This document shows, piece after piece, positions 1,610 to 16,094 of a stretch of DNA of 18,596 nt (position 1 is its first letter; every line of letters begins with the position of its first letter). The stretch spans positions 1 through 18,596 of the forward strand of contig USDU01000020.1 of NCBI GenBank assembly GCA_900553635.1, read 5' to 3'. A program made the position numbers and the translations under genes. The notes beneath the pieces are model-generated. The model was not told where the DNA came from, did no database searches, and saw nothing but the letters and a program-made list of their open reading frames with translations. The stretch comes from an uncultured Lachnospiraceae bacterium (GTDB lineage Bacteria; Bacillota_A; Clostridia; Lachnospirales; Lachnospiraceae).

Positions 1610-2677
1610 TCAGCATTTCTCCAGCAGCACCTCTATGACGCCGCCGCAGACCATGCCCTCTTCCTCCGCGTCGCAGGCTGTCATGCTCACAGGAATCAGC
1701 TCCTGCCACTTTTCCTTATCCTGCATAAGCCAGCGGGCTTTTTCCTTCACGCCCGCTTCCACACAACCGCCGCCGATGGTTCCGGATACGGTGCCGTCCT
1801 CCAGCACCAGCATTTTGGTACCGACGCTTCTTGGCGCCGAGCCCCGGCGGGCTACGATGGTACACAGCACCTTCGCCCGTGTGTCCGTCCCGTCCCCGAG
1901 AAGCTCCAGCTGCTCCTCCGAGAAGCTGCTGTTCTTCTTTTCCCCGTTTTTGACGGAAATGATTTCTCCCAGTATCGAGACCGCGATTTCCTCCGGCGTC
2001 TCCGCGTGAATGCCCAGTCCAATGGGCGCGTGAAGATCCTCCACCTGTCCTGCCGGAAAGCCCTGCTCCAGCAGCTTCTTTTTCACAAGCGCCGACCGGC
2101 CCCTGCTGCCCATCATACCCAGATAGGCATAGTTCTTCCCCAGAATCTTTTCCAGGCAGATGAGATCGTAGCGGTGCCCGCGGCTCATGACCACAAAATA
2201 CGTATCCTCGTCGCTGTCCACTGCGTCCAGTCCCTGTTCGAAGCTGTCGCAGATCACCCGCTTCGCGCCGGCCCGTCTGGCTCCGTCCGCAAAGTACGGG
2301 CGGTCCTCCAGAACCGTCACGTCAAAGCCCAGCAGCAGCGCCATACGAAGCAGCGCCACGCCCACATGGCCCGCGCCGCAGATCACCAGCTTCTTCGCTT
2401 CTCCCAGACAGTCGCAGAATACCGTCTCCCCTGCCAGCTCCTGCTGCCCTTCGGCCCGGATTACCCCGGCCTCCTCCCGGTGTTCTGTGAAGAAGCCCTG
2501 TCCGGTTCTCTCCCAGAGAAGTCCGTCTCCGGCAAAAAAGGCTTTTTCCCCCGCATGGGGTCCCTTTAAGACGGTCAGAATCCGTTTTTCCTTTTTATCC
2601 TGATATTCCTGTAAGATGGTATATAAATGACGCAAGTTTTCCACAATCCTTCTTTCTTTATGCGCGGATATCCACAT
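1610..2677 (-). CDS. xdhC: XdhC/CoxI-family molybdenum hydroxylase maturation factor
   Basis: XdhC proteins bind the finished Mo cofactor, mediate its sulfuration and insert it into xanthine dehydrogenase; here selenium would be the expected chalcogen. Numbered from the ATG at 2677 (355 aa): a poorly conserved N-terminal part (15-90), a Rossmann domain with GAGHVG (101-106), SRGHRYD near 165, MGSRGR (189-194) and APIGLGI (217-223), then a clear XdhC_CoxI segment with RRGSAPRSVGTKM (277-289), GTIGGGCVE (299-307) and CGG (344-346). The usual order is XdhC_CoxI first, Rossmann last, so this looks permuted. The ATG has AAAAGGA eight bases upstream and overlaps the previous gene by 20 bp. A GTG at 2644, just after that gene's stop, is the main alternative start; its AGAAGGA is very close. 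It is the last gene of the SDMH unit. Confidence 0.85.
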   Translation of the reverse strand: MWISAHKERRIVENLRHLYTILQEYQDKKEKRILTVLKGPHAGEKAFFAGDGLLWERTGQGFFTEHREEAGVIRAEGQQELAGETVFCDCLGEAKKLVICGAGHVGVALLRMALLLGFDVTVLEDRPYFADGARRAGAKRVICDSFEQGLDAVDSDEDTYFVVMSRGHRYDLICLEKILGKNYAYLGMMGSRGRSALVKKKLLEQGFPAGQVEDLHAPIGLGIHAETPEEIAVSILGEIISVKNGEKKNSSFSEEQLELLGDGTDTRAKVLCTIVARRGSAPRSVGTKMLVLEDGTVSGTIGGGCVEAGVKEKARWLMQDKEKWQELIPVSMTACDAEEEGMVCGGVIEVLLEKC

Positions 2678-4001
2678 CTGCGAGTTCCTTTTCCCCACAT
2701 TCCACCAGGCGCACCCTTTCCGGATACCGCTTTATCACCTGACGGCCTCCGGTATCGCCGGTCAGCTCCAGAAGCTCCGGGAAATAGCTTCGGTCCCAGA
2801 GAACCGGATTGCCCCGCCGCTCCCCGTGTCCGGCGCAGACGATAGCCCCGGGATAAGAAAAGCCCTCCTCCAGAAGTCTCTCCATAGTCGCCGGTTCCAG
2901 ATAGGGCTGGTCGCAGACCATACACAATACGCCCCGCAGATCCGGATTCTGCCGAAGACATTCCGTAAGTCCAAGCTGCAGGGAATGGCTGATTCCCCGC
3001 TCCGGCTCCCGGTTTATCACAGCCCTCACGCCGCGCTCCCCGGCTGCCCCGGCTATTTCCGGAAACCGGGTCACAATCACACGGGTGCAGTCCGAAAAAG
3101 CGCCCAGCTTATCCAACGTTACTTCGTACAGGGGACGCCCGTCCACCTGCTCCTCCAGAAGCTTATTTCCGCCGTACCGGCTGGACAGCCCCGCTGCCAG
3201 CGCCACGATACCGTACTGCCGCCCTACCAGCGTCCGGACAGCCTCCGCGCAGCCCCGTCCTATCTTATGGGATTTATCGGAAATGAGATGAACCAGGCTT
3301 TCGTCCTTTCTCGGATCCACGTCCCCGATTTTCATGCCCTTCTTTACCGGCACGCCTGCCTGCAGCATGCCCCGGATCACGCCGTCGATCTGCGCGTACA
3401 CCGGCTCGCCGCCCGTATAGGCCAGGACGCTGCCCTTCTCTACGATATCGCCGATGGCTGCCACCGGCTCCATCACGCCGTCCCCGGAAGCCTTGATCAG
3501 GCGCTCCCTGGCGTAGCCGCCCACCATGCCCGGCACGCCCGTATTGGGAATGGCGCTGCCCCGGTAAATGGGGCGGCCCATGGCTTCCCCGCGCATGGTT
3601 TCGATGACCGCATGGCAGTCTGTCCCTGCCCGGAAGCCGGGCCCCAGAGCCAGCACCAGCGGCGCGTCCGTAAGCCTTGTGCCAATATTTTTCTTCGCCA
3701 TGATGGCGTCGATGACCACCTCCGGCTGCCAGATCTCCCGCACCCGGGCTTCCGGATCTACCAGCACGCTGATGACGCCCTGTTCCGAGAGGGCTATGGC
3801 TTCCTCCGCCGATCCGGCCAGCACGCCGGTCACGCCCTCTACCTCCGCCCGCCCCTCGTAGACCGCCCGGGAATAGGCCACCTGGCGGCGTACCGTCAGC
3901 GGTACGGCGATTTCTGTCATGATAATCCGGTGGCCCTCCCGGAAAAGCTCCCAGGCCACGCCGGTAGCCAGATCCCCGGCTCCCTTGATTACGATTTTCA
4001 T
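2658..4001 (-). CDS. yqeB-mocA: YqeB (EF2563-family)-MocA fusion, selenium-dependent molybdenum hydroxylase maturation protein
   Basis: Two proteins usually encoded separately are joined here. Residues 1 to about 258 match the YqeB/EF2563 family of SDMH loci: a GAGDLATGVAWELFREGH dinucleotide-fold start, then VVIDAIMAKKNIGT (95-108), ALGPGFRAGTDCHAVIET (118-135) and a barrel-sandwich-like stretch (about 172-232). From about 264 it is a MocA/YgfJ nucleotidyltransferase that makes molybdopterin cytosine dinucleotide from CTP and Mo-MPT: LAAGLSSRYGGNK (268-280), CDQP (363-366, metal-binding Asp), GNPVLW (398-403) and GDTGGRQVI (415-423). Its ATG overlaps the yqeC stop as ATGA, so translation is probably coupled. 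The exact biochemical role of the YqeB half is unknown; its association with SDMH loci is established by comparative genomics. The reading frame crosses the junction without a break. Confidence 0.9.
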   Translation of the reverse strand: MKIVIKGAGDLATGVAWELFREGHRIIMTEIAVPLTVRRQVAYSRAVYEGRAEVEGVTGVLAGSAEEAIALSEQGVISVLVDPEARVREIWQPEVVIDAIMAKKNIGTRLTDAPLVLALGPGFRAGTDCHAVIETMRGEAMGRPIYRGSAIPNTGVPGMVGGYARERLIKASGDGVMEPVAAIGDIVEKGSVLAYTGGEPVYAQIDGVIRGMLQAGVPVKKGMKIGDVDPRKDESLVHLISDKSHKIGRGCAEAVRTLVGRQYGIVALAAGLSSRYGGNKLLEEQVDGRPLYEVTLDKLGAFSDCTRVIVTRFPEIAGAAGERGVRAVINREPERGISHSLQLGLTECLRQNPDLRGVLCMVCDQPYLEPATMERLLEEGFSYPGAIVCAGHGERRGNPVLWDRSYFPELLELTGDTGGRQVIKRYPERVRLVECGEKELADVDIRA

Positions 4002-4813
4002 CCTGTCTCTCCTGCTCTCTGAAGGTTCCAGGGCGGCATCAGATCCGCCGCCATAAGAATCCTCGTTTCCGGACTCGCAAGCGCTTTCGCCGCTTCCAGA
4101 GCCGCTGCCTTCCGTTCCCGGGTATCCGCCTTGTTAAACAACACCGCGTAGGCCATACCGGCCCTCACGCCCTTTTTGCCTCCTGCCGGACTGGCCGCCA
4201 GCTTCGCCAGATCTGCCGCCGTCAGGACGTCCTTCTCTTCTTTTCCGAGAATGGCGCAGACCTCTTCCACACGGCAGCAGACCTCTTTGATAGGCTGCCC
4301 CACTCCGTCCAGTCCATACACGCAGAGCACAAGCCCCGTCTCCGGCAGCAACACCGGTTCGCCCTCTCTGGGCGCTTTGACCGGCTTCTCTCTGGCTCCG
4401 TCTGCCTCCAGCAGAAGCCAGATCCCCTCCGCCAGAAGCTCCCGGTAAAACCGATCCGACAGCGCTTTACATTTCCAGTCGGAAACAGGCTCTCCCATCC
4501 AGAGAGTGCCTGTCTTCTTTAACATCTCCCGGGCCGCCTGCAGATCCGGACGGTCCAGAAATTCGGTATTCTTTTCATATTGGATATGGGTGGTGGTGCC
4601 TGCGGCCGCCAGGATTCCCAGTTTTTTACATTCCAACTGGAAACGGCGCAGGCAGGTGGTTTTTCCGCCTGCACCAACGATGGAAACGACGCAGTTCTTT
4701 TCCTGTTTCTTTTCCGGTTTTCCGCCAGAAGCAACGCCGCCTTCGACCAGCCCCAGGGCAACCAGCAGCGACTCCCGCTCCACCCATTTTCCGTCTATCC
4801 ATTCTTTTAACAT
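3998..4813 (-). CDS. yqeC: YqeC-family selenium-dependent hydroxylase accessory protein
   Basis: YqeC is a marker protein of SDMH clusters, thought to act in maturation of the selenium-containing Mo enzyme; its reaction is not known. The 271-residue product has a P-loop-like GAGGKTT (47-53) preceded by hydrophobic CVVSIV, then AGTTTHIQ (71-78), LLEADGAREKPVKAP (134-148, the family signature with an acidic pair) and FNKAD (226-230, resembling a GTPase NKxD element). The first 40 residues are a variable, Lys/Gly-rich lead. It begins 12 bp after the molybdopterin subunit stop with only a weak Shine-Dalgarno (GGATAAGAC), so it may depend on translation of that gene, and it ends in a 4-bp overlap with the YqeB-MocA gene. 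A nucleotide-binding function is supported by sequence; anything more specific is inference. Confidence 0.9.
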   Translation of the reverse strand: MLKEWIDGKWVERESLLVALGLVEGGVASGGKPEKKQEKNCVVSIVGAGGKTTCLRRFQLECKKLGILAAAGTTTHIQYEKNTEFLDRPDLQAAREMLKKTGTLWMGEPVSDWKCKALSDRFYRELLAEGIWLLLEADGAREKPVKAPREGEPVLLPETGLVLCVYGLDGVGQPIKEVCCRVEEVCAILGKEEKDVLTAADLAKLAASPAGGKKGVRAGMAYAVLFNKADTRERKAAALEAAKALASPETRILMAADLMPPWNLQRAGETG

Positions 4814-4825
4814 GTCTTATCCGAA

Positions 4826-7099
4826 TCAGTCTGTCCCCAGCGCAATCTTCTCGCTGGTAATCGGCAGGTTCCGGTGCCATACGCCCGTCGCGTTATAGAT
4901 GGCATGGGCCAGGGCCGGAGCCGGGGTATTGATCACGATCTCACCGATGGATTTTACGCCGAAGGGACCGGTAGGCTCGAAGCTCGGCTTAAATTCCACC
5001 CGGAAATGTCCCATATCCTGGCGGGTCGGGATCTTGTACTGCATCAGGGAACTATTGATAAGCTTACCCTTCTCCGTGTACTGGATATTCTCGTAGAGAG
5101 TCATTCCGATTCCCTGACCTAAGCCTCCCTCCACCTGGACCGTCGCCAGGTTCGGGTTCACAACCGTACCACAGTCTACCACCGCCGCATAGTCCAGGAT
5201 CTCCACATGGCCCGTCTCCTTATCCAGCTCGATTTCCACCGCGCCTGCCATATAGGGAGGCGGCGATACCGGGGAGCTGTGGCTTTCTGTCACCTGTAAC
5301 GCGATTTCGTTGCAGACCTGGGCCTTGTAGCCGATCTCCTCGCTGGTAACGGATTTTCCGGTTTTCACATCGGTGGCTTTTCTGCCGTCGAACTCCACGT
5401 CCTCCGGGTCACATTCCAGCATGCCTGCCGCTACCTGACAGATCCGTTTTTCCAGCTCTGTGGCTGCCTTGACCACGGCCTGACCGGTAATATAGGTGGT
5501 ACTGGAGGCGTAGGATCCGGAATCATAGGGAGAGCTGTCTGTGTCCGCGCCGGAGACGAAGATCTCGTCGGTGGTCACATGCAGACATTCCGCCGCCATC
5601 TGGGCCAGAATGGTATCGCAGCCGGTTCCCATATCCGCCGCCGCGATGGCCAGCTTATAGGTACCGTCCTCGTTGAGCATGATCGTCGCGGATCCCACGT
5701 CCACGCCTGAGATACAGGAGCCCTGCATGGCCATGCCCACGCCTACGGCGCGTACCTTGCCATTTCCCATATCCCGGGCAGGGTATTTTTCCTTCCAGCC
5801 AATCATTTCGCAGGCCCGGACCAGACACTCGTCCAGACGGCAGCTCTCTGCCACCTCGCCGAAATAAGCCGGCATAAGCATCTTTTCCCGTACCACATTT
5901 TTCAGTCGGAGCTCCACCGGATCCATCTGAAGAACCGTCGCCAGCTCATTTACGATGGATTCCAGGGCAAAGATTCCCTGGGTGGCTCCATAGCCCCGGT
6001 ACGCGCCTGTGGCAAGCTGATTCGTATAGACTACGTCAAATACGTGACGGAAGGCCTCCAGGTTGGCCGTATACAGGGGAATCGCCTTGTGTCCCGTCAG
6101 TCCCGCCGTAGTGGGGCCATGGTCGCCGTAAGCGCCTGTATTGGACAGGTTGTAAAGGTCGATGGCCCGGATCGTTCCGTCCCGGTCTGCGCCGATGCTG
6201 ACCCGGACGTCCATCTCATGACGGGGAGATCCGGCAATCTGGCTTTCTTTTCTGGTGTAAATGATCTTGGACGGCTTCTTTGTCATCCAGGTAACAAAGG
6301 CCGGATATATCTCCGTCACCACCGTCTGCTTGGCGCCGAAGCCGCCGCCAATCCGGGGCTTCATGGCCCGCACCTTTGCCCTGGGAATTCCGAGGGCCGT
6401 GGATACAATTCGTCTTACATGGAATACGATCTGGGTCGAGCTTACGACCACCAGTCTTCCGTAGGTGTCGATATAGCAATAGGTCCGGAAGGTCTCCATC
6501 ATGGCCTGGTTGACCGCCGGGACATGGTAGGTGCGGGTAAGCTTTACCTCACAGTCCTCAAGGACCGCCTCCACATCTCCGTCTCCGTCCTCCATATGGG
6601 CGCAGAGATTCCGCCTGTTGTCGGCTCCCACCGGGAACCGGGATTCCCAGTTGTCCTCCGGATGCACCAGAATTTCATTGTCGATGGCCTCATGGTAATC
6701 CAGCAGCGCCGGAAGCACCTGATATTTCACCCGGATCACCCGCAGGGCCTTATCCACACATTCTTCATTCTCGCCTGCTACAATCGCTACCGGATCGCCC
6801 ACAAAGCGCACATGCTGATCGAGAATCAGATGGTCGTAGGGGCTCCACTCCGGATAGGTCTGTCCCGCTGTGGCAAACCGGTTCTTCGGCACGTCCTTCC
6901 AGGTATACACTGCCTCGATACCCGGAATCTTCAGGGCCGCCGCATAGTTTACGTCCTCCACGATGGCATTGGCGTGGGGGCTGCGAAGAAGCTTTACCAC
7001 CAGACATTCCTTCGGAGCGAGGTCATCTACATAGACCGGCTGTCCCGTCACCAGCGCTATGGCGTCCTTCTTGCGTTCCCGTTTTCCTACTTCCCGCAT
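4826..7099 (-). CDS. xdhA: Xanthine dehydrogenase-like molybdenum hydroxylase, molybdopterin-binding subunit
   Basis: Catalytic subunit of a three-subunit molybdenum hydroxylase, predicted to interconvert hypoxanthine, xanthine and urate (or a related heterocycle) at a Mo centre with a labile selenium ligand. At 757 aa it has the a/b hammerhead domain (about 15-135) and the two Mo-binding domains. Motifs seen: GGGFGAK (251-257), TGAYRGYGATQG (364-375), GTGCDT (491-496), VVDCGTVVNPNLATVQVEGG (640-659, read through GLGQGIG) and FGVKSIGE (713-720), where E720 aligns with the catalytic base Glu of xanthine dehydrogenases. The start has GGAGGTG four bases before the ATG and overlaps the iron-sulfur subunit by 13 bp. 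Purine specificity comes from the neighbouring permease and Xpt, not from residues I can prove. No in-frame TGA is present, so selenium would be a cofactor, not selenocysteine. Confidence 0.92.
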   Translation of the reverse strand: MREVGKRERKKDAIALVTGQPVYVDDLAPKECLVVKLLRSPHANAIVEDVNYAAALKIPGIEAVYTWKDVPKNRFATAGQTYPEWSPYDHLILDQHVRFVGDPVAIVAGENEECVDKALRVIRVKYQVLPALLDYHEAIDNEILVHPEDNWESRFPVGADNRRNLCAHMEDGDGDVEAVLEDCEVKLTRTYHVPAVNQAMMETFRTYCYIDTYGRLVVVSSTQIVFHVRRIVSTALGIPRAKVRAMKPRIGGGFGAKQTVVTEIYPAFVTWMTKKPSKIIYTRKESQIAGSPRHEMDVRVSIGADRDGTIRAIDLYNLSNTGAYGDHGPTTAGLTGHKAIPLYTANLEAFRHVFDVVYTNQLATGAYRGYGATQGIFALESIVNELATVLQMDPVELRLKNVVREKMLMPAYFGEVAESCRLDECLVRACEMIGWKEKYPARDMGNGKVRAVGVGMAMQGSCISGVDVGSATIMLNEDGTYKLAIAAADMGTGCDTILAQMAAECLHVTTDEIFVSGADTDSSPYDSGSYASSTTYITGQAVVKAATELEKRICQVAAGMLECDPEDVEFDGRKATDVKTGKSVTSEEIGYKAQVCNEIALQVTESHSSPVSPPPYMAGAVEIELDKETGHVEILDYAAVVDCGTVVNPNLATVQVEGGLGQGIGMTLYENIQYTEKGKLINSSLMQYKIPTRQDMGHFRVEFKPSFEPTGPFGVKSIGEIVINTPAPALAHAIYNATGVWHRNLPITSEKIALGTD

Positions 7100-7563
7100 G
7101 CGGCACCTCCGTTCTTCTTATACTCGATAAAGGCGTGCATTCCCCGCAGCTGTCCCTCATAGCCGGAGCAGCGGCACAGGTTGCCTGCCAGATACTGCTT
7201 GATTTCCTCGTCGGTGGGCTCCGGGTTCTCCCGGAACAGGGCGATGGCGTTCATAATCATGCCCGGATTGCAGAAGCCGCACTGCTCCGCGCCCTGATCG
7301 GCGATAAAGGAGCCGAATTCCTCTGCCTCCTTCTGCAGTCCCTCCAGGGTCTCCACCCGGCGTCCCTCTGCCCGCGCCGCAAGCATGGCGCAGGAAAGCA
7401 CCGGAGTACCGTCCAGAAATACGGTACAGAGTCCGCAGTTGGTGGTCTCACAGCCGCATTTTACACTGTAGCAGCCATGCTTCCGGACAAAATCAAAGAG
7501 TGTCATATCCGCGGCAATCTCATCTGTTATCTTTTTTCCGTTTAAGATCATCGTTACGATCAT
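7087..7563 (-). CDS. Molybdenum hydroxylase 2x[2Fe-2S] subunit
   Basis: Small electron-transfer subunit that passes electrons between the Mo centre and FAD. The 158-residue protein has the plant-ferredoxin-type cluster pattern [10 protein letters not shown] followed by C58 (C38, C43, C46, C58) and the C-terminal alpha-helical cluster domain with CGFCNPGM (C95, C98) and CRCSGY (C130, C132). Two additional cysteines, C31 and C36, sit next to the first cluster and are not canonical ligands. Length is normal for a stand-alone subunit. The reading frame stays open 53 codons further upstream, but that extension overlaps the FAD gene and is not family-like; the ATG at 7563 has AAAGGAGTGAGG upstream and begins 7 bp after the FAD subunit stop. 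The 3' end overlaps the molybdopterin subunit by 13 bp. Confidence 0.95.
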
Positions 7564-7570
7564 GTCAGCC

Positions 7571-8332
7571 TCACTCCTTTCCCTGAATCTCTGCAAAGGC
7601 ACGCCCAAGCAGCACGCCCGCCAGATGACGGCGGAAGGTGTCGGAGGCGCGCATATTGCTCTGGAACTGGGTTTCCTCTGCCAGACGCTCTGCCGTCTCC
7701 TTGTCCATGCGCTCGATCTCATACAGCTTCGCGATACCCGGTCTTGCGCCGATCACGGCCTTCTTTACGCCGCCGCAGTCGGATACGGCCACGGTCAGCA
7801 CCGGAAAATCGGTTCGTATGTTCCGGTGGGACAGATACGCAAAATGACCCGGACATTTCTTTACGATGACCCGCACCAGAATGTCATTGTCACGCTTCAT
7901 TTTTACAAATTCTGACATTCGGACAATGCCGCCCTTATAGAGCTCCACATAGGAATCCAGGGCCAGAAACGCCGTCATTACATCAGAGAAGCCGAAGCGT
8001 CCGAAGATGCTGCCGCCTACCGTAGCCAGGTTACGGAACTGGGTGCCCACGATATCGCAGACCGCGTCATGCAGCAGTCCCTCGCACAGGGCGTTCAGTC
8101 CCTCATGCAGCTCGATCTGACGTAAGGTCGCCATGCAGCCGATGGAAAATGCTTCCTCCGTCTCCTCGATCTGATCAAGACCCAGGCCTGACAGATCGAT
8201 GGCCTTCTGCACGTTCCGGTTGCCCAGGCGGAGCCACAGCATACCGCCCAGGATCTTGTTGGTGCGCTTCTGGTTCAGCTCCCAGGCCTCCTCCAGACTT
8301 TCCACCCTTACCAATTCTCTTATTTTTATCAT
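7571..8332 (-). CDS. xdhB: Molybdenum hydroxylase FAD-binding subunit
   Basis: FAD subunit of the same enzyme, a PCMH/CO-dehydrogenase-flavoprotein type protein of 253 aa that would exchange electrons with NAD(P) or another carrier. The second FAD motif is clear: VGTQFRNLATVGGSIFGRFG (95-114, GxxxRNxATxGG type), followed by SDVMTAFLALDSYVEL (116-131) and the C-terminal CoxM-like domain (about 160-253). The first motif is KILGGMLWLRLG (26-37), where classical members have AGGTDL, so the pyrophosphate loop is unusual. The ATG at 8332 follows AAAGGAGG by six bases and lies one base after the permease stop TAG, a tight junction. An in-frame start 24 bases further upstream would overlap the permease and is rejected. 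Confidence 0.93.
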   Translation of the reverse strand: MIKIRELVRVESLEEAWELNQKRTNKILGGMLWLRLGNRNVQKAIDLSGLGLDQIEETEEAFSIGCMATLRQIELHEGLNALCEGLLHDAVCDIVGTQFRNLATVGGSIFGRFGFSDVMTAFLALDSYVELYKGGIVRMSEFVKMKRDNDILVRVIVKKCPGHFAYLSHRNIRTDFPVLTVAVSDCGGVKKAVIGARPGIAKLYEIERMDKETAERLAEETQFQSNMRASDTFRRHLAGVLLGRAFAEIQGKE

Positions 8333-8333
8333 G

Positions 8334-9725
8334 CTATTCCTCCTTTGGGAGAACAATATTCAGGATAATCGCTACCAGGGCAGCCGGTACGATACCGGAG
8401 CCGCCGAAGATGAGCTGTACGCTCTGGGGCAGTCCTGCCAGCACGCCGCTGTTGGCGCCCAGACCATAGCCCAGACCCAGCGCTACAGATACAATCGTCG
8501 TGTTGCGGACGGTCATTTTCTCCTTGGTAATCAGACCGATACCGCTGACTACGATGGAAGAGAACATCATAACTGCCGCGCCGCCCAGAACACTCTGGGG
8601 CATAATGGAAATCAATGCGGACAGCTTGGGGAACAGGCCGCAGAGAATCAGGAACACGGCTCCGGTCGCCAGGGCAAACCGGTTTACCACCTTGGTCATG
8701 GTCACCAGACCTACGTTCTGGCTAAAAGAAGTGTTCGGAAGCACGCCGAACAGGGAAGCCAGTGAGGATCCCACACCGTCGCAGACTACGCCGCCGGACA
8801 GCTCGGAATCGGTCGCCTCCCGATCCATACCACCCTCAATTACACCGGAGATATCTCCTACGGTCTCCACCGCAGTTACCACGAACATAATCAGTACCGG
8901 AACAATGGCTCTGGGATCAAAGACCAGCTTCACCGGCATCAGGGCCGGAACCGCGAACCATTTTGCCTGGGCTACCTTGTCCCAGTTCAGAACCCATGCC
9001 TTAGTATACTCCACGCCCTCCGCGGTTACTCCAGTGGTGGGCAGAACCAGCGCCATGATCGCCGCCACAATATAGCCTACAATAATTCCAATCAGAATGG
9101 AAGAAACACTGGTCATTCCCTTGGTGCCATGCTTCAGCGCAATGATGACCACCAGCACCAGGGTTCCCAGGAGCAGGTTTTCCATGGAGCCGTAATCCTT
9201 TGCGGAGCTTCCGCCGCCAAAGGATCCCACGCCTACGGAAATCAGGGACAGACCGATGGAAAGCACCACGGTACCGGTCACAACTGCCGGGAAGAAGCGG
9301 CGCAGGGGCTTCAGCATAAAGCCCAGAACCGTCTCAAAAAGGCCGCCAATCAGGGATGCTCCCAGAATCGCGCCGTACGCCAGGATACCGCCGCCCATGA
9401 CGCCCGCCACGCTGTTAAATACGCCGATAAAGCCGGAGCTGGTACCCATGATAATCGGCACCTTTCCGCCCACCGGACCGATGGCGTACAGCTGAATCAG
9501 GGTTACAATTCCCGCCACCAGCATGGCGTTCTGCAGAAGCGCTACCTGCACCTCCGCAAATTCCGTACCGGAGCCGATTCCACAGGCTCCTGTGATAATC
9601 AGAATCGGGGTCAGATTTCCCACGAACATGGCCAGCACGTGCTGGAGTCCCAGGGGAAATGCCTTTCGAAAAGGCATTTTGCCATAAAAATCATAGGCTG
9701 CTTTCTTGTTTTCTGCTTCATTCAT
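8334..9725 (-). CDS. NCS2-family xanthine/uracil-type permease
   Basis: Polytopic inner-membrane importer of the nucleobase:cation symporter-2 family; genomic context points to xanthine or a related purine as substrate. The 463-residue protein has about 12-14 hydrophobic segments, with GLQHVLAM (26-33, TM1 His), GTSSGFIG (94-101), VETVGD (286-291, the conserved acidic transport residue in TM8) and PNTSFSQNVGLVTMTK (330-345), which holds the NCS2 signature in TM10. The ATG at 9725 has AGGAG eight bases upstream. A 44-bp gap separates it from the DUF3343 gene and I see no promoter in it. It is followed by the FAD gene after one base. Exact substrate (xanthine, urate, hypoxanthine, uracil) cannot be read from sequence alone. 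Confidence 0.93.
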   Translation of the reverse strand: MNEAENKKAAYDFYGKMPFRKAFPLGLQHVLAMFVGNLTPILIITGACGIGSGTEFAEVQVALLQNAMLVAGIVTLIQLYAIGPVGGKVPIIMGTSSGFIGVFNSVAGVMGGGILAYGAILGASLIGGLFETVLGFMLKPLRRFFPAVVTGTVVLSIGLSLISVGVGSFGGGSSAKDYGSMENLLLGTLVLVVIIALKHGTKGMTSVSSILIGIIVGYIVAAIMALVLPTTGVTAEGVEYTKAWVLNWDKVAQAKWFAVPALMPVKLVFDPRAIVPVLIMFVVTAVETVGDISGVIEGGMDREATDSELSGGVVCDGVGSSLASLFGVLPNTSFSQNVGLVTMTKVVNRFALATGAVFLILCGLFPKLSALISIMPQSVLGGAAVMMFSSIVVSGIGLITKEKMTVRNTTIVSVALGLGYGLGANSGVLAGLPQSVQLIFGGSGIVPAALVAIILNIVLPKEE

Positions 9726-9769
9726 ACACGTTTCTCCTCATTTGCAATAGATAAATTCTTACATATTTT

Positions 9770-10006
9770 TCATAGTTCCAGGGTATACATACCCTCCCAC
9801 CGGATAGCCGCCCCAAGCATTGCCTGCTGCAGCAGCTCCTTCTCTGCGGGCTTCGCCTTCCAGGCCATCCCACAGCCTGCAGTAATCTCCCGGGGAATGG
9901 GAATCAGTCTGCCGGGAAGCCCCTCCTTTTCACAATGCCGTTCCATTTTCATGGCCTCGGTGGTGGTTCCGAAGGAGATCACCAGCGCTTCTGTTTTTTT
10001 CCGCAT
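9770..10006 (-). CDS. DUF3343 putative Se/S carrier-like protein
   Basis: A 78-residue cytoplasmic protein of the DUF3343 (Se/S carrier-like) family, which recurs next to selenium-metabolism genes. It begins ALVISFGTTTEAMKMER, a short strand-helix start typical of the family, and has the signature PREITAGCGMAWKA (38-51) with C45 as the conserved cysteine; C25 is a second one. The proposed role is to hold a chalcogen as a persulfide or selenenylsulfide. The reading frame stays open upstream for 68 codons, but that part lies in the shadow of the PLP-enzyme gene; the ATG at 10006 has GGAGGAG seven bases upstream and starts four bases after the PLP-enzyme stop. Family assignment is by motif and context; the carrier function is an inference and has not been shown here. 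Confidence 0.84.
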   Translation of the reverse strand: MRKKTEALVISFGTTTEAMKMERHCEKEGLPGRLIPIPREITAGCGMAWKAKPAEKELLQQAMLGAAIRWEGMYTLEL

Positions 10007-10010
10007 TGTC

Positions 10011-11162
10011 TTACTCCTCCGCCAGCTCCCGGACGGCTGCAGCCGCCTCGTCTGCCTCTGCCTCCGTATTGAAATAAGAAAAGCTGAACCGGACCGCCCC
10101 CTGCTCCCGGGTTCCCAGCGCCTCATGCATGAGCGGCGCGCAGTGGGCTCCTCCCCGGACGGCGATCCCGTAATCCTCATAGAGCCAGTCCGCCACCCTT
10201 GCGGAATCATAATCCCGGATATTCAGGGACTGGATTCCCGTCCGCCGGTCCAGATCCGGATTTCCGTAGAGGGTTACGCCTTCCACCTCCTTCACGCCGT
10301 CCACGAACCGCCGAAGAAGCGCCTGCTCCCGGGCACGAATCTGCTCCACGCCGGTCTCCAGAAGCCAACGGGCCGCCGCGCCCAGGCCCGCAATCCCATG
10401 GCCGTTCAGGGTGCCCGCCTCCAGCGCCGCCGGCATCTCCGACGGGTGTTCCCGGTCGAAGCTGTGAATTCCGCTTCCGCCCACCTTCAGCGGCCGGATC
10501 GAAAGACCGGGACGGACGCAGACGCCTCCGGTTCCCTGGGGGCCGTAAAGTCCCTTATGTCCCGTAAAGCACAGGACGTCGATCCCCATACGTTCCATAT
10601 CCATGGGGACTGCGCCCGCCGTCTGCGCAGCGTCTACGATAAGCAAAAGGCTGTGCTTTTTTGCGAAGGCTGCCGCCTGCTCCAGATCGGTGATGTTGCC
10701 GGTCAGGTTGGAGGCGTGGGTGATGATCAGGGCTTTTGTGTTCGGACGGAGCAGGGATTCCAACTCATCGTAAGCCAGGATGCCTGCCTGCCGCTCCTCC
10801 CCGGCTTCCGCCTTTCCAGGAAGCACCGACAGTTCCACACCCTGCAGCCGGTACAGGGGCCGCAGCACGGAATTGTGCTCGCAGACGGTGGTAATCACAT
10901 GATCCCCCGGCCCGAACAGGCCGCCAAGCGCCAGGTTCAGGCTCTCGGTGGCATTGGCCGTAAAGGCCACCTGCTCCGGAGCCGCCGCGCCCAGAAGCTC
11001 TGCCAGGCTTTCTCTGGCCCGGTAGATGGTTCGCCCCGCGTAAAGGGACGCGTCATGGACGCCCCTTCCGGAATTTCCCATGGAAGCCATGGCTTCCAGA
11101 AGGGCCTCCCTTACGCACTCGGGCTTTTGCAGGGTGGTCGCCCCGTTATCCAGATAAATCAT
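10011..11162 (-). CDS. Cysteine desulfurase / selenocysteine lyase-like PLP enzyme (EF2568 family)
   Basis: Class V aminotransferase-fold enzyme that would release sulfur or selenium from cysteine or selenocysteine as an enzyme-bound persulfide/perselenide. The 383-residue protein starts MIYLDNGATT like NifS/SufS proteins; H96 and D177 (VDAAQTAGA) contact PLP, K203 in FTGHKGLYGPQG is the Schiff-base lysine, and C341 in RGGAHCAPL is the active-site cysteine on the mobile loop. It matches the cysteine desulfurase subfamily that is typically encoded in SDMH loci, such as the Enterococcus faecalis EF2568 protein. Its ATG overlaps the yedF stop (ATGA) and it is followed four bases later by the DUF3343 gene, suggesting that the three products work together. 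Whether it prefers selenocysteine or cysteine cannot be decided from sequence. Confidence 0.92.
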   Translation of the reverse strand: MIYLDNGATTLQKPECVREALLEAMASMGNSGRGVHDASLYAGRTIYRARESLAELLGAAAPEQVAFTANATESLNLALGGLFGPGDHVITTVCEHNSVLRPLYRLQGVELSVLPGKAEAGEERQAGILAYDELESLLRPNTKALIITHASNLTGNITDLEQAAAFAKKHSLLLIVDAAQTAGAVPMDMERMGIDVLCFTGHKGLYGPQGTGGVCVRPGLSIRPLKVGGSGIHSFDREHPSEMPAALEAGTLNGHGIAGLGAAARWLLETGVEQIRAREQALLRRFVDGVKEVEGVTLYGNPDLDRRTGIQSLNIRDYDSARVADWLYEDYGIAVRGGAHCAPLMHEALGTREQGAVRFSFSYFNTEAEADEAAAAVRELAEE

Positions 11163-11779
11163 GGCTTAACGATTTTCGCCGCGCCCGCCATGGTCTCGGC
11201 GATGACGTACATATTGGTGACCTCGCCCACCTTTAAGCTGTCTGTCAGCCCGTAATGGTTCAGGCAGGTGCCGCAGGTGAGAATCTGTACGCCCTGAGCC
11301 TCCAGGGACTTCAAATCCTCCAGGGACGCGGACCCCTCGCAGGTGAGGGCGGCGCCTCCATTGTAAAAGAGCAGGGTCTTCGGCAGGGTATCCAGCTGTG
11401 TCAGCGCATAGAGATACCCCTTCATCAAAAGCCGTCCAAGCTCCGGATCTCCCTCGCCCATGGTGGCGGAGGCTATCACGACCACCGTATTCTCCCTGGC
11501 GTCGGGAATACATGCTTCCTGCTCCGCTGCCGTCGGCGCAGTCTGCTTATCTGCTGCATTTTCGCCAATCTCCATGGTTACCTGATACTGTCTGTCTGAA
11601 AGCTTTTTGGAGCTGACCTTGTAGCCCTTCTGATTGGCCATCTTGGTCAGGTTCTGAACTGCAATCTCATTGTCTACCAGCGTCTCCACCACGCCGCTTC
11701 CGCCCAGCTCTTTAATGGCGTTTTTGGTCTTCACTACGGGAATCGGGCAAGCGTCGCCCAGTGCGTTTACCTGAATCAT
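11159..11779 (-). CDS. yedF: Selenium metabolism protein YedF (TusA-like + DsrE-like)
   Basis: Two-domain cytoplasmic protein found with selD across bacteria. Residues 1-72 form a TusA/SirA-like domain with the CPxP-type motif GDACPIPVVKTKNAI (C11), the persulfide-carrying cysteine in TusA relatives. A linker (73-97) leads to a DsrE-like domain starting TVVVIASATMGEGD and ending with LTCGTCLNHYGL (C169 and C172), a CxxC pair suited to redox or chalcogen transfer; C147 is a further cysteine. Length (206) is normal for the family. The ATG at 11779 follows AGGAGGGAAAGAAAC. It lies 81 bp after selD and overlaps the PLP-enzyme start by 4 bp. Likely role: accept selenium from a lyase and pass it to SelD or to the Mo-cofactor machinery; the direction of transfer is inference. 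Confidence 0.93.
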   Translation of the reverse strand: MIQVNALGDACPIPVVKTKNAIKELGGSGVVETLVDNEIAVQNLTKMANQKGYKVSSKKLSDRQYQVTMEIGENAADKQTAPTAAEQEACIPDARENTVVVIASATMGEGDPELGRLLMKGYLYALTQLDTLPKTLLFYNGGAALTCEGSASLEDLKSLEAQGVQILTCGTCLNHYGLTDSLKVGEVTNMYVIAETMAGAAKIVKP

Positions 11780-11808
11780 GTTTCTTTCCCTCCTGTTCCT
11801 TTCTTATT

Positions 11809-11837
11809 TTTATGAAAATTTCTTTCTATAAAAACAA
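11809..11837 (-). promoter_or_regulatory. Weak candidate internal promoter upstream of yedF
   Basis: In the AT-rich 81-bp gap between selD and yedF the minus strand reads TTGTTT (11832-11837), 17 bases, then CATAAA (11809-11814). Each hexamer matches consensus at four of six positions. It is the largest gap in the SDMH unit, so an internal start is plausible, but AT-rich spacers give such matches by chance. Confidence 0.25.
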
Positions 11838-11860
11838 CTTCCTTCTTTATAAATAATTAC

Positions 11861-12898
11861 CTATGAGTCTCCTTCGACTACCAGAATCTCCGGCTCCGTG
11901 CGCTCCACAATCTCGCCCATGATCTCTGCCGGAAGCCCCGCCGCGCGAAGCTCATTTCTCAGATCCTCTGCCTCCTCCGCGCCCACTGCGAACAGCAGAC
12001 CGCCGGAGGTCTGCGGATCAAAGAGCAGTTCCTCCATGGCAAATGGGATGTTTTTGAATTTTACATATTTTTCCACATGATTCCGATTCTTCTGTCCGGC
12101 CGCCGTCAGCAGAAATTCCTCTGCATGATGCAGCGCTTCCTCGATGCGCGGCACCTTCTCCGCCTGTATCCGACAGGACAGCTTTCCGTCCATCATCTCA
12201 TGGAGATGGCCCAGAAAACCAAAGCCCGTCACATCGGTACAGGCGTGAATCTCGTAGTTTCTTCCTATCTCAGAGGCTGTTTTATTCAGCGTAGTCATGG
12301 ACGCAATCGCCTCCGCCATCGCCTCTTCGGAAGCCTCGCCCACCCGGTTCGCCGTGCAGACGATACCGACGCCCAGCTTTTTCGTGAAAATCAGCCTGTC
12401 GCCGGGACGTCCGCCATTGTTGGACCAGATGCGATCCGGGTGTACCAGGCCCATGACTGACAGGCCATATTTTACATCCGTATCGTTGATAGAATGGCCT
12501 CCCGCCAGGATGCCTCCGGCCTCCTGCACCTTTTCAGATCCGCCCCGCATGATTTCTCCCAGGATATTCAGATCCGAAGACTCCGGAAAGCAGACGATAT
12601 TGAGCGCGGTTTTCACGTCGCCACCCATGGCGTAGATATCGCTTAAGGCGTTGGCTGCCGCTATTTTCCCGAAAGTATAGGGGTCGTCCACCATCGGCGG
12701 AAAAAAATCCAGGGTCTGGACCACCGCTGTGTCGTCGCTGATGCGGTAAACCGCCGCGTCGTCCTTGCTGTCGTAGCCCACCAGAAGATCCGGATTCTCC
12801 GACCCCCTGGGCAGCTTTTCCAGGACATGGCTTAAAACGCCGGCTCCCAGCTTTGCTGTACAACCGCCGCCCTTACAGAATACGATTTTTTCACTCAT
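11861..12898 (-). CDS. selD: Selenide, water dikinase (selenophosphate synthetase) SelD
   Basis: SelD makes selenophosphate from selenide and ATP, the activated selenium donor for Sec-tRNA, selenouridine and the labile Mo-hydroxylase cofactor. The 345-residue product has the active-site loop [13 protein letters not shown] with C13 and K16 in the positions of E. coli Cys17 and Lys20; C13 is encoded by TGT, so this is the Cys and not the Sec form. Further matches are [18 protein letters not shown] (61-78), [11 protein letters not shown] (83-93), AGGHS (132-136) and [16 protein letters not shown] near residue 220. I use the ATG at 12898, 22 bp after xpt, because an upstream ATG at 12934 overlaps xpt and adds a basic segment not typical of the family; the Shine-Dalgarno (AGAAG) is weak. 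No selA, selB or selC is in view. Confidence 0.95.
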
Positions 12899-12920
12899 AG
12901 TTTTTCTTCTAATCCAATCT

Positions 12921-13514
12921 TTATTCCACTTCACTCTGATCGCGGAATTTCACATTTCCGGTCGCTGCGTCCATGCTCTCTACGATGGCCAGGGACTCCA
13001 GCTGATAGCCAAGGTTCCGGATCATCCGTCCGCCGGACTGGAAGCCCTTTTCTACAGCGATTCCGATACCTTCCACGGTGCCGCCTGCCTGTGCCACGAT
13101 GGAAATCAGGCCCTGCAGCGCGCAGCCATTTGCCAGAAAGTCGTCGATGATCAGCACGTGATCCTCCGGCCCTAAGAAACGCTTGGATACGATGACCTGA
13201 TTTTTGTTCTTGTGAGTGAAGGATTCTACCTCCGCCACATAGACGTCCCCGTCGATGTTGATGCTCTGGCTTTTTTTGGCAAATACCACCGGCACGTCGA
13301 AATAGCTGGCTACCACACAGGCAATGCCGATACCGGAGGCTTCAATGGTCATGATTTTATTGATATTCTTGTCCGCGAAGCGCTTTTTGAACTCCTCGCC
13401 CATCTGCTTGAACAGGTTGATGTCCATCTGATGATTCAGAAAGCTGTCTACTTTCAGGACGTTGCCTTCTTTTACGATGCCGTCTTTTAAAATTCTTTCT
13501 TCCAGGAAATTCAT
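12921..13514 (-). CDS. xpt: Xanthine phosphoribosyltransferase Xpt
   Basis: Converts xanthine and PRPP to XMP, feeding the GMP branch of purine salvage. The 197-residue protein follows Bacillus subtilis Xpt closely along its length: [13 protein letters not shown] (19-31), [13 protein letters not shown] (53-65), [11 protein letters not shown] (74-84), the PRPP loop [13 protein letters not shown] (120-132) and [11 protein letters not shown] (149-159). The ATG at 13514 has AAAAAGGAG upstream. It heads the SDMH operon, so xanthine imported by the NCS2 permease can go either to XMP here or to the molybdenum hydroxylase. In Bacillus this gene sits behind a guanine riboswitch; here the leader is only about 40 nt, too short for one, so control must be at the promoter or elsewhere. 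Confidence 0.96.
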
Positions 13515-13559
13515 GGTTTTTCTCCTTTTTGTCGTTTCTTTCTACTAATGTTATCTTTA

Positions 13560-13588
13560 AAAATAGCATAGATATCGACATTTTTCAA
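13560..13588 (-). promoter_or_regulatory. Sigma-A-type promoter of the xpt-selD-xdh operon
   Basis: The minus strand has TTGAAA (13583-13588), exactly 17 bases, then TATTTT (13560-13565), in an AT-rich stretch. Predicted transcription starts near 13553 and gives a leader of roughly 40 nt ending in a good AAAAAGGAG ribosome binding site. The -35 box lies 11 bp after the stop codon of the preceding two-component operon, with no terminator hairpin between, so read-through into xpt is possible. Confidence 0.55.
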
Positions 13589-13599
13589 GGAAGTTTGCG

Positions 13600-14544
13600 C
13601 TATAGGGCAAAATAAATGGCAAGACTCAGGGAACCGAGGCGGAGATAGTAATTGACTTCTCCCTTGTCGCTCTCACGGTAAACAACCTGCGCCGTCCGGG
13701 AACCGTCCGGATTCATATCGCTGATACCCCATTCTTCGCTTACCAGCCTTCTGGCGTCTTCTTCGGTATAGCCCTTCTTTTCGTAAAGGCGCACCTGATT
13801 GTCATAGTCCGTCTTATCTCCATCGGAAAGTATGGTATCTGCCAGTTCCCAGCTCTGCGTAACGCGCTCTGTTGTCAGGCCCAGATAGGAGCCGAATTTT
13901 TGAGCCCGCTCTGCCACGTCCGAATCGGTCGCCGCCGCATCCGAATCGGTCGCCGCCACGCCTGAATCGGTCGCCACCGCATCGGAACGGATTCCATTCT
14001 CATAACCCTCGTTCCACTCCTGAATGCCCAGCTCCAGAAGCTTACCGGTCTCGTCATCCAGGGCAGCTTTCAGGAGCCATCTGTCCTCCTCCGTGTCGAT
14101 TTGGAAATTCAGCATCCAGATAATCATGGATTTTTCCCCGCTGGGGTCGATATAGAAAATCGGATCCGCACTCTGCTCTGCGTCATCTTCTGTCATTTCG
14201 ACTGTGCGGAAGGTTTCGTCCAGCACGCCCATTTCACATAAGGTACCAAGCTCTTCCTCCGCTTTCGCAAGGCTTCCTGCCACGTCGTAATTTTTCCCTT
14301 TTTCCAATACCGTAGTGCTCGCGTCGGCGCTCAGAAACAGCTCCGCCTTTTCTACCATGCTAAGCTCTGTCTGGGACGTAATCCGCACCTCCGGCGCTTC
14401 CTCCGTCTCCACCACAGACAGACGCCTGTCGTCCTGCCATTTTCGGAAAGCCAAGGGAACGCCAAAGCCCACTGACGCCGCCAGAAGCAGCGCTCCCACG
14501 GTCAGAAGCCAGCTTTTGCGGGATCTGCAGTTTTTTCTTCTCAT
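13600..14544 (-). CDS. Unrecognised single-pass membrane protein of the two-component operon
   Basis: I do not recognise a family. The 314-residue product has a basic N-terminus, one hydrophobic segment (about 11-33) that could be an anchor or uncleaved signal, and a large, acidic outside domain. LLKAALDDETGKLLELGI (157-174) resembles the strand-turn-strand of PepSY-like domains, but this is weak. Residues 189-209 are three copies of a seven-residue repeat rich in Ala, Thr, Asp and Ser, probably a flexible linker between two halves. The C-terminus ends in a hydrophobic SLSLAIYFAL. Its ATG overlaps the sensor kinase stop (ATGA) and has GGGGAGGAGG upstream, so it belongs to that operon and may modulate the kinase or be its signal receptor. 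That role is inference from position only. Confidence 0.8.
   Translation of the reverse strand: MRRKNCRSRKSWLLTVGALLLAASVGFGVPLAFRKWQDDRRLSVVETEEAPEVRITSQTELSMVEKAELFLSADASTTVLEKGKNYDVAGSLAKAEEELGTLCEMGVLDETFRTVEMTEDDAEQSADPIFYIDPSGEKSMIIWMLNFQIDTEEDRWLLKAALDDETGKLLELGIQEWNEGYENGIRSDAVATDSGVAATDSDAAATDSDVAERAQKFGSYLGLTTERVTQSWELADTILSDGDKTDYDNQVRLYEKKGYTEEDARRLVSEEWGISDMNPDGSRTAQVVYRESDKGEVNYYLRLGSLSLAIYFAL
13922..13984. repeat. Three tandem 21-bp repeats inside the membrane-protein gene
   Basis: Copies at 13922-13942, 13943-13963 and 13964-13984 all start GAATCGGTCGCC and differ at a few positions; a truncated fourth GAACGGATTCC follows. The period is a multiple of three, so copy-number change would add or remove seven-residue units (ATDSD core) without a frameshift. 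Confidence 0.85.
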
Positions 14545-15998: not shown

Positions 15999-16094
15999 CC
16001 GTTATCCTCTTTTCATTTTTATACTCTGCGTTCTGCCTCCGAACAGTCTATATTCTAAACCAGTTGCCGCAGATAGCTTTATTCCCCGTACTGA

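What the first reader, a model, noticed from the sequence alone, without database searches (positions are those of the whole stretch)
1610..13588. Single-operon selenium-dependent molybdenum hydroxylase system for purines, from import to cofactor
Twelve same-strand genes combine purine import (NCS2), salvage (Xpt), a three-subunit Mo hydroxylase, selenium activation (SelD, YedF, PLP enzyme, DUF3343) and cofactor maturation (YqeC, YqeB-MocA, XdhC). SDMH loci are known from comparative genomics (E. faecalis EF2563-type genes, orphan SelD) and in clostridial xanthine dehydrogenase biochemistry, but how selenium is installed is unsolved. Having nearly all candidate parts in one tight unit, with nine of the eleven internal junctions overlapping or under 25 bp, makes this locus a minimal parts list. 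The direction of catalysis (xanthine to urate or urate to xanthine) is unknown.
Basis: partly seen in the sequence, partly recalled or inferred. Interest (0 to 1): 0.7.

Follow-up and report, generated by a model that had tools for sequence, protein, structure and literature searches.

The report
Selenium-equipped bacterial purine enzyme operon
A bacterium related to gut Lachnospiraceae keeps in one run of twelve genes a probable purine-handling molybdenum enzyme, a purine importer and salvage enzyme, and the gene set thought to load selenium onto such enzymes; this kind of locus is known, but relatives carry the same enzyme without the main selenium genes, which makes the selenium step testable by comparison.

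Summary
In detail: twelve intact minus-strand genes (13514 down to 1610), nine of eleven junctions overlapping or under 25 bp, named by curated models. It is a new member of a known kind, the selenium-cofactor trait; Enterococcus faecalis EF2563-EF2573 has nearly the same parts. "Minimal parts list" is not supported. Of 250 genomes of one family, 69 carry the window-type hydroxylase; in 13 of them neither SelD nor YqeB nor XdhC was found, while MocA (11), permease (6) and Xpt (5) still neighbour it. So SelD, YqeB and XdhC look like an add-on. Among the 69, XdhC occurs in 50 of 52 with YqeB and 2 of 17 without, and tracks it in phylogenetically independent pairs. Three active-site residues do not differ. 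SelD without SelA occurs in 45 of 250; 44 have YqeB, one only broken YqeB. YqeC is predicted to be a SIMIBI-class GTPase; YqeB, YqeC, MocA and XdhC are joined by natural fusions. Likely use: urate/xanthine interconversion feeding Xpt. Selenium in this enzyme could not be tested.

The parts
12921..13514 (-). xpt, xanthine phosphoribosyltransferase (197 aa)
   Evidence: NF006671 271 bits, TIGR01744 231 bits, both over cut-off
11861..12898 (-). selD, selenophosphate synthetase, cysteine type (GGGCTAK), no in-frame TGA, 345 aa
   Evidence: TIGR00476 398 bits; ATG at 12898
11159..11779 (-). yedF, TusA + DsrE-like protein with CPIP and CGTC motifs (206 aa)
   Evidence: TIGR03527 219 bits; translation
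10011..11162 (-). EF2568/SclA-like PLP cysteine desulfurase or selenocysteine lyase (383 aa)
   Evidence: TIGR01977 401 bits over 377; SclA model NF040779 326 bits under 525
9770..10006 (-). DUF3343 / Se_S_carrier small protein (78 aa)
   Evidence: PF11823 82 bits; ATG at 10006
8334..9725 (-). NCS2 xanthine/urate-type permease (463 aa)
   Evidence: TIGR00801 307 bits over 292; PbuX model 359 under 414; 32% to both E. coli XanQ and UacT
7571..8332 (-). FAD subunit of the hydroxylase (253 aa)
   Evidence: PF00941 71 bits, PF03450 27 bits
7087..7563 (-). [2Fe-2S] subunit of the hydroxylase (158 aa)
   Evidence: PF01799 86 bits, PF00111 23 bits
4826..7099 (-). molybdenum-cofactor subunit of the hydroxylase (757 aa); Q258, R368, E720
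   Evidence: PF02738, PF20256, PF01315 over cut-off; these residues the same in 70 of 70 rows
3998..4813 (-). yqeC; predicted SIMIBI-class P-loop GTPase (271 aa)
2658..4001 (-). yqeB (about 1-258) fused to a MocA-like nucleotidyltransferase (about 262-447)
   Evidence: TIGR03309 313 bits over 220; PF12804 117 bits; TIGR03310 103 under 186; model pLDDT 94.7
1610..2698 (-). XdhC-type maturation factor, Rossmann domain first, CoxI domain second (362 aa from GTG)
   Evidence: PF13478 135 bits, PF02625 76 bits; domain order
13560..13588 (-). promoter-like match upstream of xpt (weak)
   Evidence: 9 of 12 positions, TG before the second hexamer; matches in the window not above shuffles

Best explanation
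A purine uptake and salvage operon whose three-subunit molybdenum hydroxylase is fitted with the selenium-cofactor maturation cassette. Proposed order: NCS2 brings in urate, xanthine or a related purine; the hydroxylase, working reversibly, yields xanthine; Xpt traps xanthine as XMP. The PLP enzyme releases selenium (probably from selenocysteine), DUF3343 and YedF pass it on, SelD makes selenophosphate. MocA turns the molybdenum cofactor into the (probable cytosine) dinucleotide, and an assembly of YqeB, YqeC and XdhC holds that cofactor, exchanges a terminal ligand for selenium with YqeC as a GTP-driven gate, and hands it to the Mo subunit. Shown here: gene set, order, domain content, predicted folds, co-occurrence, fusions, and that the same hydroxylase exists without SelD, YqeB and XdhC. 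Inferred: each chemical step, the substrate, the direction, and that this enzyme carries selenium.
For: YqeB, YqeC and SelD over curated cut-offs in one run with the hydroxylase. In 250 genomes of G001's family: YqeB 73, SelD 82, both 70, YqeB only 3, SelD only 12. SelD without SelA in 45; 44 have YqeB, and the 45th (G213) has broken YqeB pieces and a SelD fragment; 0 of 48 genomes searched (these 45 and the 3 YqeB-only ones) have 2-selenouridine synthase over cut-off. SelD lies within 15 kb of YqeB in 26 of 44 SelA-less genomes and 1 of 26 SelA-bearing ones, where SelD sits within 15 kb of SelA in 19 of 26. XdhC in 71 of 73 YqeB genomes and 9 of 177 others; 9 independent pairs on the hydroxylase tree, on average 8.0 concordant, 0.0 opposed, 1.1 not differing, median p 0.008. 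Fusions YqeB-MocA (9), MocA-YqeB (3), YqeC-YqeB (1), YqeC-MocA (11), MocA-YqeC (1), XdhC-YqeB (2) in 28 chosen loci, plus E. coli XdhC-YqeB. YqeC: G47, G49, G50, K51 in 35 of 35 filled rows, EADG 36 of 36, N227/D230 nearly invariant, SRP-GTPase fold. Published: selD and yqeB needed for good urate/xanthine growth in C. difficile; EF2570 described as a selenium-dependent XDH. Xpt near the window-type hydroxylase in 18 of 69 stretches, E. coli-type uricolytic genes in 2.
Against: In 13 of 69 genomes the hydroxylase is there and SelD, YqeB and XdhC were not found, so selenium is not needed for the gene to persist. No column of the Mo subunit clearly separates cassette-linked from selenium-less copies, so the sequence does not mark a selenoenzyme. 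In 36 of the 52 YqeB-bearing genomes with this hydroxylase no YqeB or YqeC match lies in the fetched stretch (34 with SelD, 2 without; two of these, G035 and G137, do have SelD, YedF and XdhC there), so YqeB may serve another hydroxylase there. yqeC deletion alone had no obvious phenotype in C. difficile. In E. faecalis 75Se labelled a 30-kDa protein that its authors thought unlikely to be the hydroxylase and possibly HP1/YqeB or HP2/YqeC. No hydroxylase subunit passes an XDH equivalog cut-off. The window's own genome is not held. E415 aligns, in a gappy stretch, with E. coli XdhD E606, a residue proposed to favour yanthine formation, which would mean a different product.
Confidence: 0.68

Rival explanations
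1. The selenium genes sit here, but this hydroxylase runs with sulfur or oxygen as terminal ligand; the cassette serves another hydroxylase elsewhere in the genome.
For: The same hydroxylase exists in 13 of 69 genomes where SelD, YqeB and XdhC were not found, and in 36 YqeB genomes with no YqeB/YqeC in the fetched stretch; sequences do not separate.
Against: In the window and its nearest clade (window, G001, G251; SH-aLRT 100) yqeB, yqeC and selD lie in the run with the subunit genes.
Confidence: 0.2
2. Same enzyme, opposite use: xanthine is oxidised to urate, and Xpt simply shares the regulation.
For: Clostridial XDHs are described as reversible; E. coli XdhABC oxidises xanthine in vivo.
Against: Xpt competes for xanthine and recurs beside this enzyme (18 of 69), while E. 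coli-type urate-degrading neighbours do not (2 of 69).
Confidence: 0.3
3. The substrate is not xanthine/urate at C8 but another purine position or another N-heterocycle, for example the 2,8-dioxopurine route of XdhD.
For: 37% identity to E. coli XdhD against 34% to XdhA; E415 aligns with XdhD E606; below the XDH equivalog cut-offs.
Against: R368 is R as in XdhA, Q in XdhD; Xpt and NCS2 neighbours and hardly any YgfK/SsnA-type neighbours.
Confidence: 0.2
4. SelD in this organism serves selenocysteine or selenouridine and is next to the hydroxylase by accident.
For: The window's genome is not held, so this was not tested in it.
Against: Cys-type SelD; in the nearest relatives G001 and G251 no SelA match and no 2-selenouridine synthase over cut-off; SelD of SelA users is mostly near SelA, not YqeB.
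Confidence: 0.04

Closest known systems
Enterococcus faecalis V583 EF2563-EF2573 selenium-cofactor locus (Haft and Self 2008; Zhang et al. 2008)
   Same: YqeB, YqeC, a small hypothetical protein (EF2565), YedF, orphan SelD, PLP enzyme, MobA-related protein, Mo hydroxylase, XdhC and a xanthine/uracil permease in one region
   Different: There the FeS and Mo domains are one protein (EF2570), ModE and uricolytic-type genes follow, MocA and YqeB are separate; here three separate subunits, a YqeB-MocA fusion, and Xpt leads the run
E. coli K-12 xdhABC-yqeB-yqeC-mocA-ygfK-xdhD region
   Same: Three-subunit XdhABC, YqeB, YqeC, MocA and purine permeases (L081)
   Different: No selD, yedF, PLP desulfurase or DUF3343 annotated in the stretch; uricolytic genes present; E. 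coli YqeB carries an XdhC part instead of a MocA part
Clostridioides difficile selD/yqeB-dependent purine use (Johnstone and Self 2024)
   Same: selD and yqeB needed for good growth on urate and xanthine
Window-type hydroxylase loci without SelD, YqeB and XdhC in the same bacterial family (for example L207, L211, L214-L217)
   Same: FAD, FeS and Mo subunits 48-75% identical; MocA, NCS2 or Xpt neighbours in many
   Different: No SelD, YqeB or XdhC found in the genome; a FecCD-type ABC importer in 8-9 of 13

Membership tests
Selenium-cofactor trait (SDMH locus) | SelD present | tested here: met
   TIGR00476 398 bits over 125
Selenium-cofactor trait (SDMH locus) | YqeB (TIGR03309) and YqeC (TIGR03172) both present | tested here: met
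   313 over 220 and 203 over 73 bits
Selenium-cofactor trait (SDMH locus) | Molybdenum hydroxylase subunits next to them | tested here: met
   Pfam domains over cut-off; Mo-yqeC gap 12 bp
Selenium-cofactor trait (SDMH locus) | SelD not explained by selenocysteine or selenouridine | tested here: inconclusive
   Window genome not held; in relatives G001 and G251 no SelA and no 2-selenouridine synthase over cut-off
Selenium-cofactor trait (SDMH locus) | Labile, cyanolysable selenium on the enzyme | not testable with these tools
   needs purified protein
Xanthine dehydrogenase equivalogs (NF043082/83/84, TIGR03311) | Score over curated cut-off | tested here: not met
   621/780, 49/310, 133/217, 279/830
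Purine-type molybdenum hydroxylase (works like) | R at the XdhA position and the catalytic-type E conserved | tested here: met
   R368 and E720 in 70 of 70 rows, as in E. coli XdhA; the roles are recalled from bovine xanthine oxidase
Selenocysteine lyase SclA (NF040779) | Score over curated cut-off | tested here: not met
   326 of 525 bits; EF2568 family TIGR01977 met, 401 over 377
MocA cytidylyltransferase (TIGR03310) | Score over curated cut-off | tested here: not met
SIMIBI-class GTPase (YqeC) | P-loop, acidic Walker-B-like motif, NKxD | tested here: met
   GAGGKTT at 47, EADG at 136, NKAD at 227-230
SIMIBI-class GTPase (YqeC) | Fold | tested here: met
SIMIBI-class GTPase (YqeC) | GTP binding and hydrolysis | not testable with these tools
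   biochemistry
XdhC maturation factor | Rossmann and CoxI domains | tested here: met
   PF13478 135, PF02625 76 bits; equivalogs NF045664 (251 of 350) and TIGR02964 (135 of 162) not reached

The most novel reading that the evidence does not exclude
Selenium is a swappable upgrade of one common gut purine hydroxylase. The bare enzyme (FAD-FeS-Mo plus MocA) works without selenium and without XdhC; SelD, YqeB, YqeC and XdhC are gained and lost together as one maturation unit, so in this lineage XdhC is a selenium-loading factor for this enzyme rather than a general sulfuration chaperone, and YqeC is the GTPase that drives the step.
Probability: 0.5. Interest if true: 0.7.

Novelty: new member of a known kind. 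Interest (0 to 1): 0.5.

Why it matters
[quoted passage not shown] The locus is a compact source of the candidate parts, and the family survey gives matched natural pairs: the same enzyme with and without SelD/YqeB/XdhC. Comparing such a pair would ask directly what selenium adds and which proteins install it. If the substrates are as inferred, it bears on urate handling in the gut.

Tried and rejected
Rejected: (1) that the whole unit is needed or minimal. (2) That a swapped domain order of XdhC (Rossmann then CoxI, as in the window) marks selenium use: of 95 distinct translated frames (a few from overlapping stretches of one genome) 45 are CoxI-first, 47 Rossmann-first, 3 Rossmann only, and Rossmann-first also occurs in stretches from XdhC genomes without SelD, such as L290-L292. 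(3) That the Mo subunit carries a clear selenium signature: best single-column p 2.9e-4 (Y669) against a 5% quantile of 3.2e-4 in 100 permutations, borderline and not corrected for kinship; the Q258, R368 and E720 columns do not vary, while E415 (62 of 70 E) and Y616 (18 Y, 49 F) do. (4) That YqeB carries selenium on a conserved cysteine: the best column (237) is Cys in 31 of 32 rows of A3 but Val in the window. (5) That the extra genes beside selenium-less copies are an alternative sulfuration system: they are a FecCD/periplasmic-binding ABC importer. (6) That all long YqeB frames are YqeB-MocA: of 14, 9 are YqeB-MocA, 3 MocA-YqeB, 1 YqeC-YqeB, and in G254 no second domain was found on its short contig.

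Led nowhere: Rfam and tRNA scans. A firm fold for the YqeB half: MocA-type chains filled the match lists shown; the profile gives only weak hints of a Rossmann N-terminus (best E 0.016) and a lipoyl/biotinyl-like C-terminus (E 0.21 and 0.85); Johnstone and Self had noted an AccB-like similarity. P0117 (YqeC-YqeB-MocA, 675 aa) is a single sequence whose YqeC end looks out of frame to me; not counted.

SelB was searched in 8 genomes only. G071, counted as without YqeB, has a 54-position YqeB match in a 72-aa frame, and G213 broken pieces. The tree holds 65 of the 69 survey genomes (G108, G122, G157 and G213 dropped for short matches, so 11 of the 13 selenium-less copies), plus the window, four GTDB loci (one, L080, at 49% identity) and two E. 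coli rows, 72 in all; 65 rows entered the pair test. The tree was built quickly, with SH-aLRT and no bootstrap. Fisher tests ignore kinship. Uricolytic neighbours were sought with E. coli proteins only, so C. difficile-type UacX/UacY would be missed. Some fusion loci were picked for long frames, so the counts are not frequencies, and in L045 and L060 the YqeC and MocA matches overlap. Literature searches covered open-licence PubMed Central only. XdhC had already been tied to the trait in 2008 (Table 1 and text of Zhang et al.; XdhC-YqeB fusions in Haft and Self); what I did not see in the passages read, nor in the two papers listed for YqeB+XdhC+selenium, is that XdhC is missing where the same hydroxylase lives without YqeB.

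Full report
What is there. The window's minus strand carries twelve intact genes from 13514 to 1610, with gaps of 22, 81, -4, 4, 44, 1, 7, -13, 12, -4 and -41 bp. Curated models name them xpt, selD, yedF, an EF2568-type PLP enzyme, DUF3343, an NCS2 permease, FAD, FeS and Mo subunits of a molybdenum hydroxylase, yqeC, yqeB fused to a MocA-like half, and xdhC. SelD is the cysteine type. The hydroxylase passes domain cut-offs but none of the xanthine-dehydrogenase equivalog cut-offs it was scored against, so the enzyme name is open. Upstream lie a two-component system and a gene without Pfam match; downstream VanY-type and QueH genes on the same strand.

Is it more than chance. The window's genome is not held. 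The closest relatives found are unnamed or MAG genomes of one family, L001 being titled uncultured Lachnospiraceae. G251 repeats the order selD-yedF-PLP-DUF3343-ncs2-FAD-FeS-Mo-yqeC-yqeB/mocA; G001 has selD-ncs2-FAD-FeS-Mo-yqeC-yqeB/mocA-xdhC, with yedF, the PLP gene and DUF3343 on another contig of the draft. Their Mo subunits are 82% identical to the window's and the three form one supported clade.

Selenium use in the family. Of eight genomes reached through my loci, four (G003, G006, G007, G008) have SelA and SelB over cut-off and a SelD with an in-frame TGA; three (G001, G004, G005) have SelD without TGA, no SelA match and no SelB over cut-off; one small draft (G002) has no SelD match. 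2-selenouridine synthase is over cut-off in one of the eight (G008). In 250 genomes drawn from G001's family, YqeB is over cut-off in 73, SelA in 37, and SelD found at E 1e-40 or better in 82 (77 over cut-off). YqeB and SelD co-occur in 70; 3 have YqeB only, 12 SelD only. Of 45 genomes with SelD and no SelA over cut-off, 44 have YqeB; the exception, G213, has broken YqeB pieces and a SelD fragment. Of 48 genomes searched (those 45 and the 3 YqeB-only ones) 0 have 2-selenouridine synthase over cut-off; 15 have sub-cut-off matches. In this sample SelD without SelA (45) is more common than SelA (37). SelD is within 15 kb of YqeB in 26 of 44 SelA-less genomes but 1 of 26 with SelA; in the latter it is within 15 kb of SelA in 19. 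Zhang et al. had seen selD near HP1 and HP2 in 5 organisms, all with orphan SelD, so this extends a known pattern.

The natural comparison. Window-type Mo subunits (53% identity or more, fragments included) occur in 69 of the 250 genomes. In 13 of them neither SelD nor YqeB nor XdhC was found. Their stretches hold the Mo subunit in 13 of 13, FAD and FeS subunits in 12 each, a MocA-like match in 11, the NCS2 permease (70% or more) in 6 and Xpt in 5. XdhC over cut-off is present in 50 of the 52 that have YqeB and in 2 of the 17 that do not; those 2 (G071, G213) hold YqeB fragments. Over all 250: both 71, YqeB only 2, XdhC only 9, neither 168. On the hydroxylase tree YqeB presence needs at least 10 changes. 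Nine independent pairs that differ in YqeB give on average 8.0 concordant, 0.0 opposed and 1.1 undecided pairs for XdhC (median p 0.008), and 6.9, 0.2 and 1.9 for SelD (median p 0.016). Mo-subunit sequences of 21 cassette-linked rows (16 survey genomes, the window, four GTDB loci) and 13 selenium-less rows (11 without SelD and YqeB, plus G027 and G131, which have SelD but no YqeB) do not separate convincingly; Q258, R368 and E720 are the same in all 70 family rows. So selenium appears to be added to an enzyme that can also do without it. Against this: in 36 of the 52 YqeB genomes with this hydroxylase no YqeB or YqeC lies in the fetched stretch, so I cannot say which hydroxylase YqeB serves there. 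XdhC also occurs in 7 genomes without SelD or YqeB and without this hydroxylase, so it is not exclusive to selenium in general. XdhC was already linked to the trait in 2008; the converse, its absence where this hydroxylase lives without YqeB, is what I add.

Extra genes beside the selenium-less copies. A FecCD-type ABC importer (ATPase, permease, binding protein) recurs in 8-9 of 13 such loci and 2 of 56 others, the 2 being G027 and G131, genomes with SelD but no YqeB. Its cargo is unknown; molybdate or tungstate is a guess.

Substrate and direction. Identity is 34% to E. coli XdhA and 37% to XdhD. R368 agrees with XdhA; E415 (E in 62 of 70 rows) aligns, in a gappy stretch, with XdhD E606, a residue proposed to contribute to 2,8-dioxopurine formation. 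Xpt lies in 18 of 69 stretches (mean 17.8 kb) and E. coli-type uricolytic genes in 2, so I favour supply of xanthine for salvage, including urate to xanthine, without excluding the reverse.

Papers seen: PMC2276186 parts 1-2 of 4 of the text; PMC11448449 abstract, introduction, results part 1 of 2, discussion; PMC12507026 abstract and passages; PMC5029168, PMC5322559, PMC2432076 and PMC12990295 passages only.

Verdict. Observation confirmed; a new member of the known selenium-cofactor trait. The part worth following is the natural comparison: the same hydroxylase, with and without a SelD-YqeB-XdhC set that largely comes and goes together.

Noticed in passing
1544-1578 (between xdhC and vanY, reaching the first codon of the longest vanY frame): Ten-base inverted repeat TTCCTCACCT/AGGTGAGGAA with a 15-base loop and no T run, just after xdhC.
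   Followed up: no
712-1551 and 25-696: VanY-family D,D-carboxypeptidase (170 bits to the VanY-B/G model, under its cut-off of 400) and QueH epoxyqueuosine reductase follow on the same strand; the transcript could run on.
   Followed up: no
13600-16748: Response regulator with a winged-helix output domain, sensor kinase and a 325-aa protein without Pfam match lie just upstream of xpt on the same strand, 85 bp away.
   Followed up: partly
L208:2571-3743, L210:1304-2449: Beside two selenium-less copies MocA is fused to a different P-loop NTPase (PF03266), where YqeC-MocA fusions occur in selenium loci.
   Followed up: partly
L207-L221: FecCD-type ABC importer, and in several loci a small regulator with a LysR-type helix-turn-helix (22 bits, under cut-off), recur beside selenium-less hydroxylase copies.
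   Followed up: partly
1610-2698 and L290-L329: XdhC occurs in two domain orders (45 CoxI-first, 47 Rossmann-first among 95 distinct frames), not tied to selenium.
   Followed up: yes
L173: Selenium cluster that also holds a guanine deaminase-like gene (33% to E. coli GuaD) between MocA and the hydroxylase subunits.
   Followed up: no
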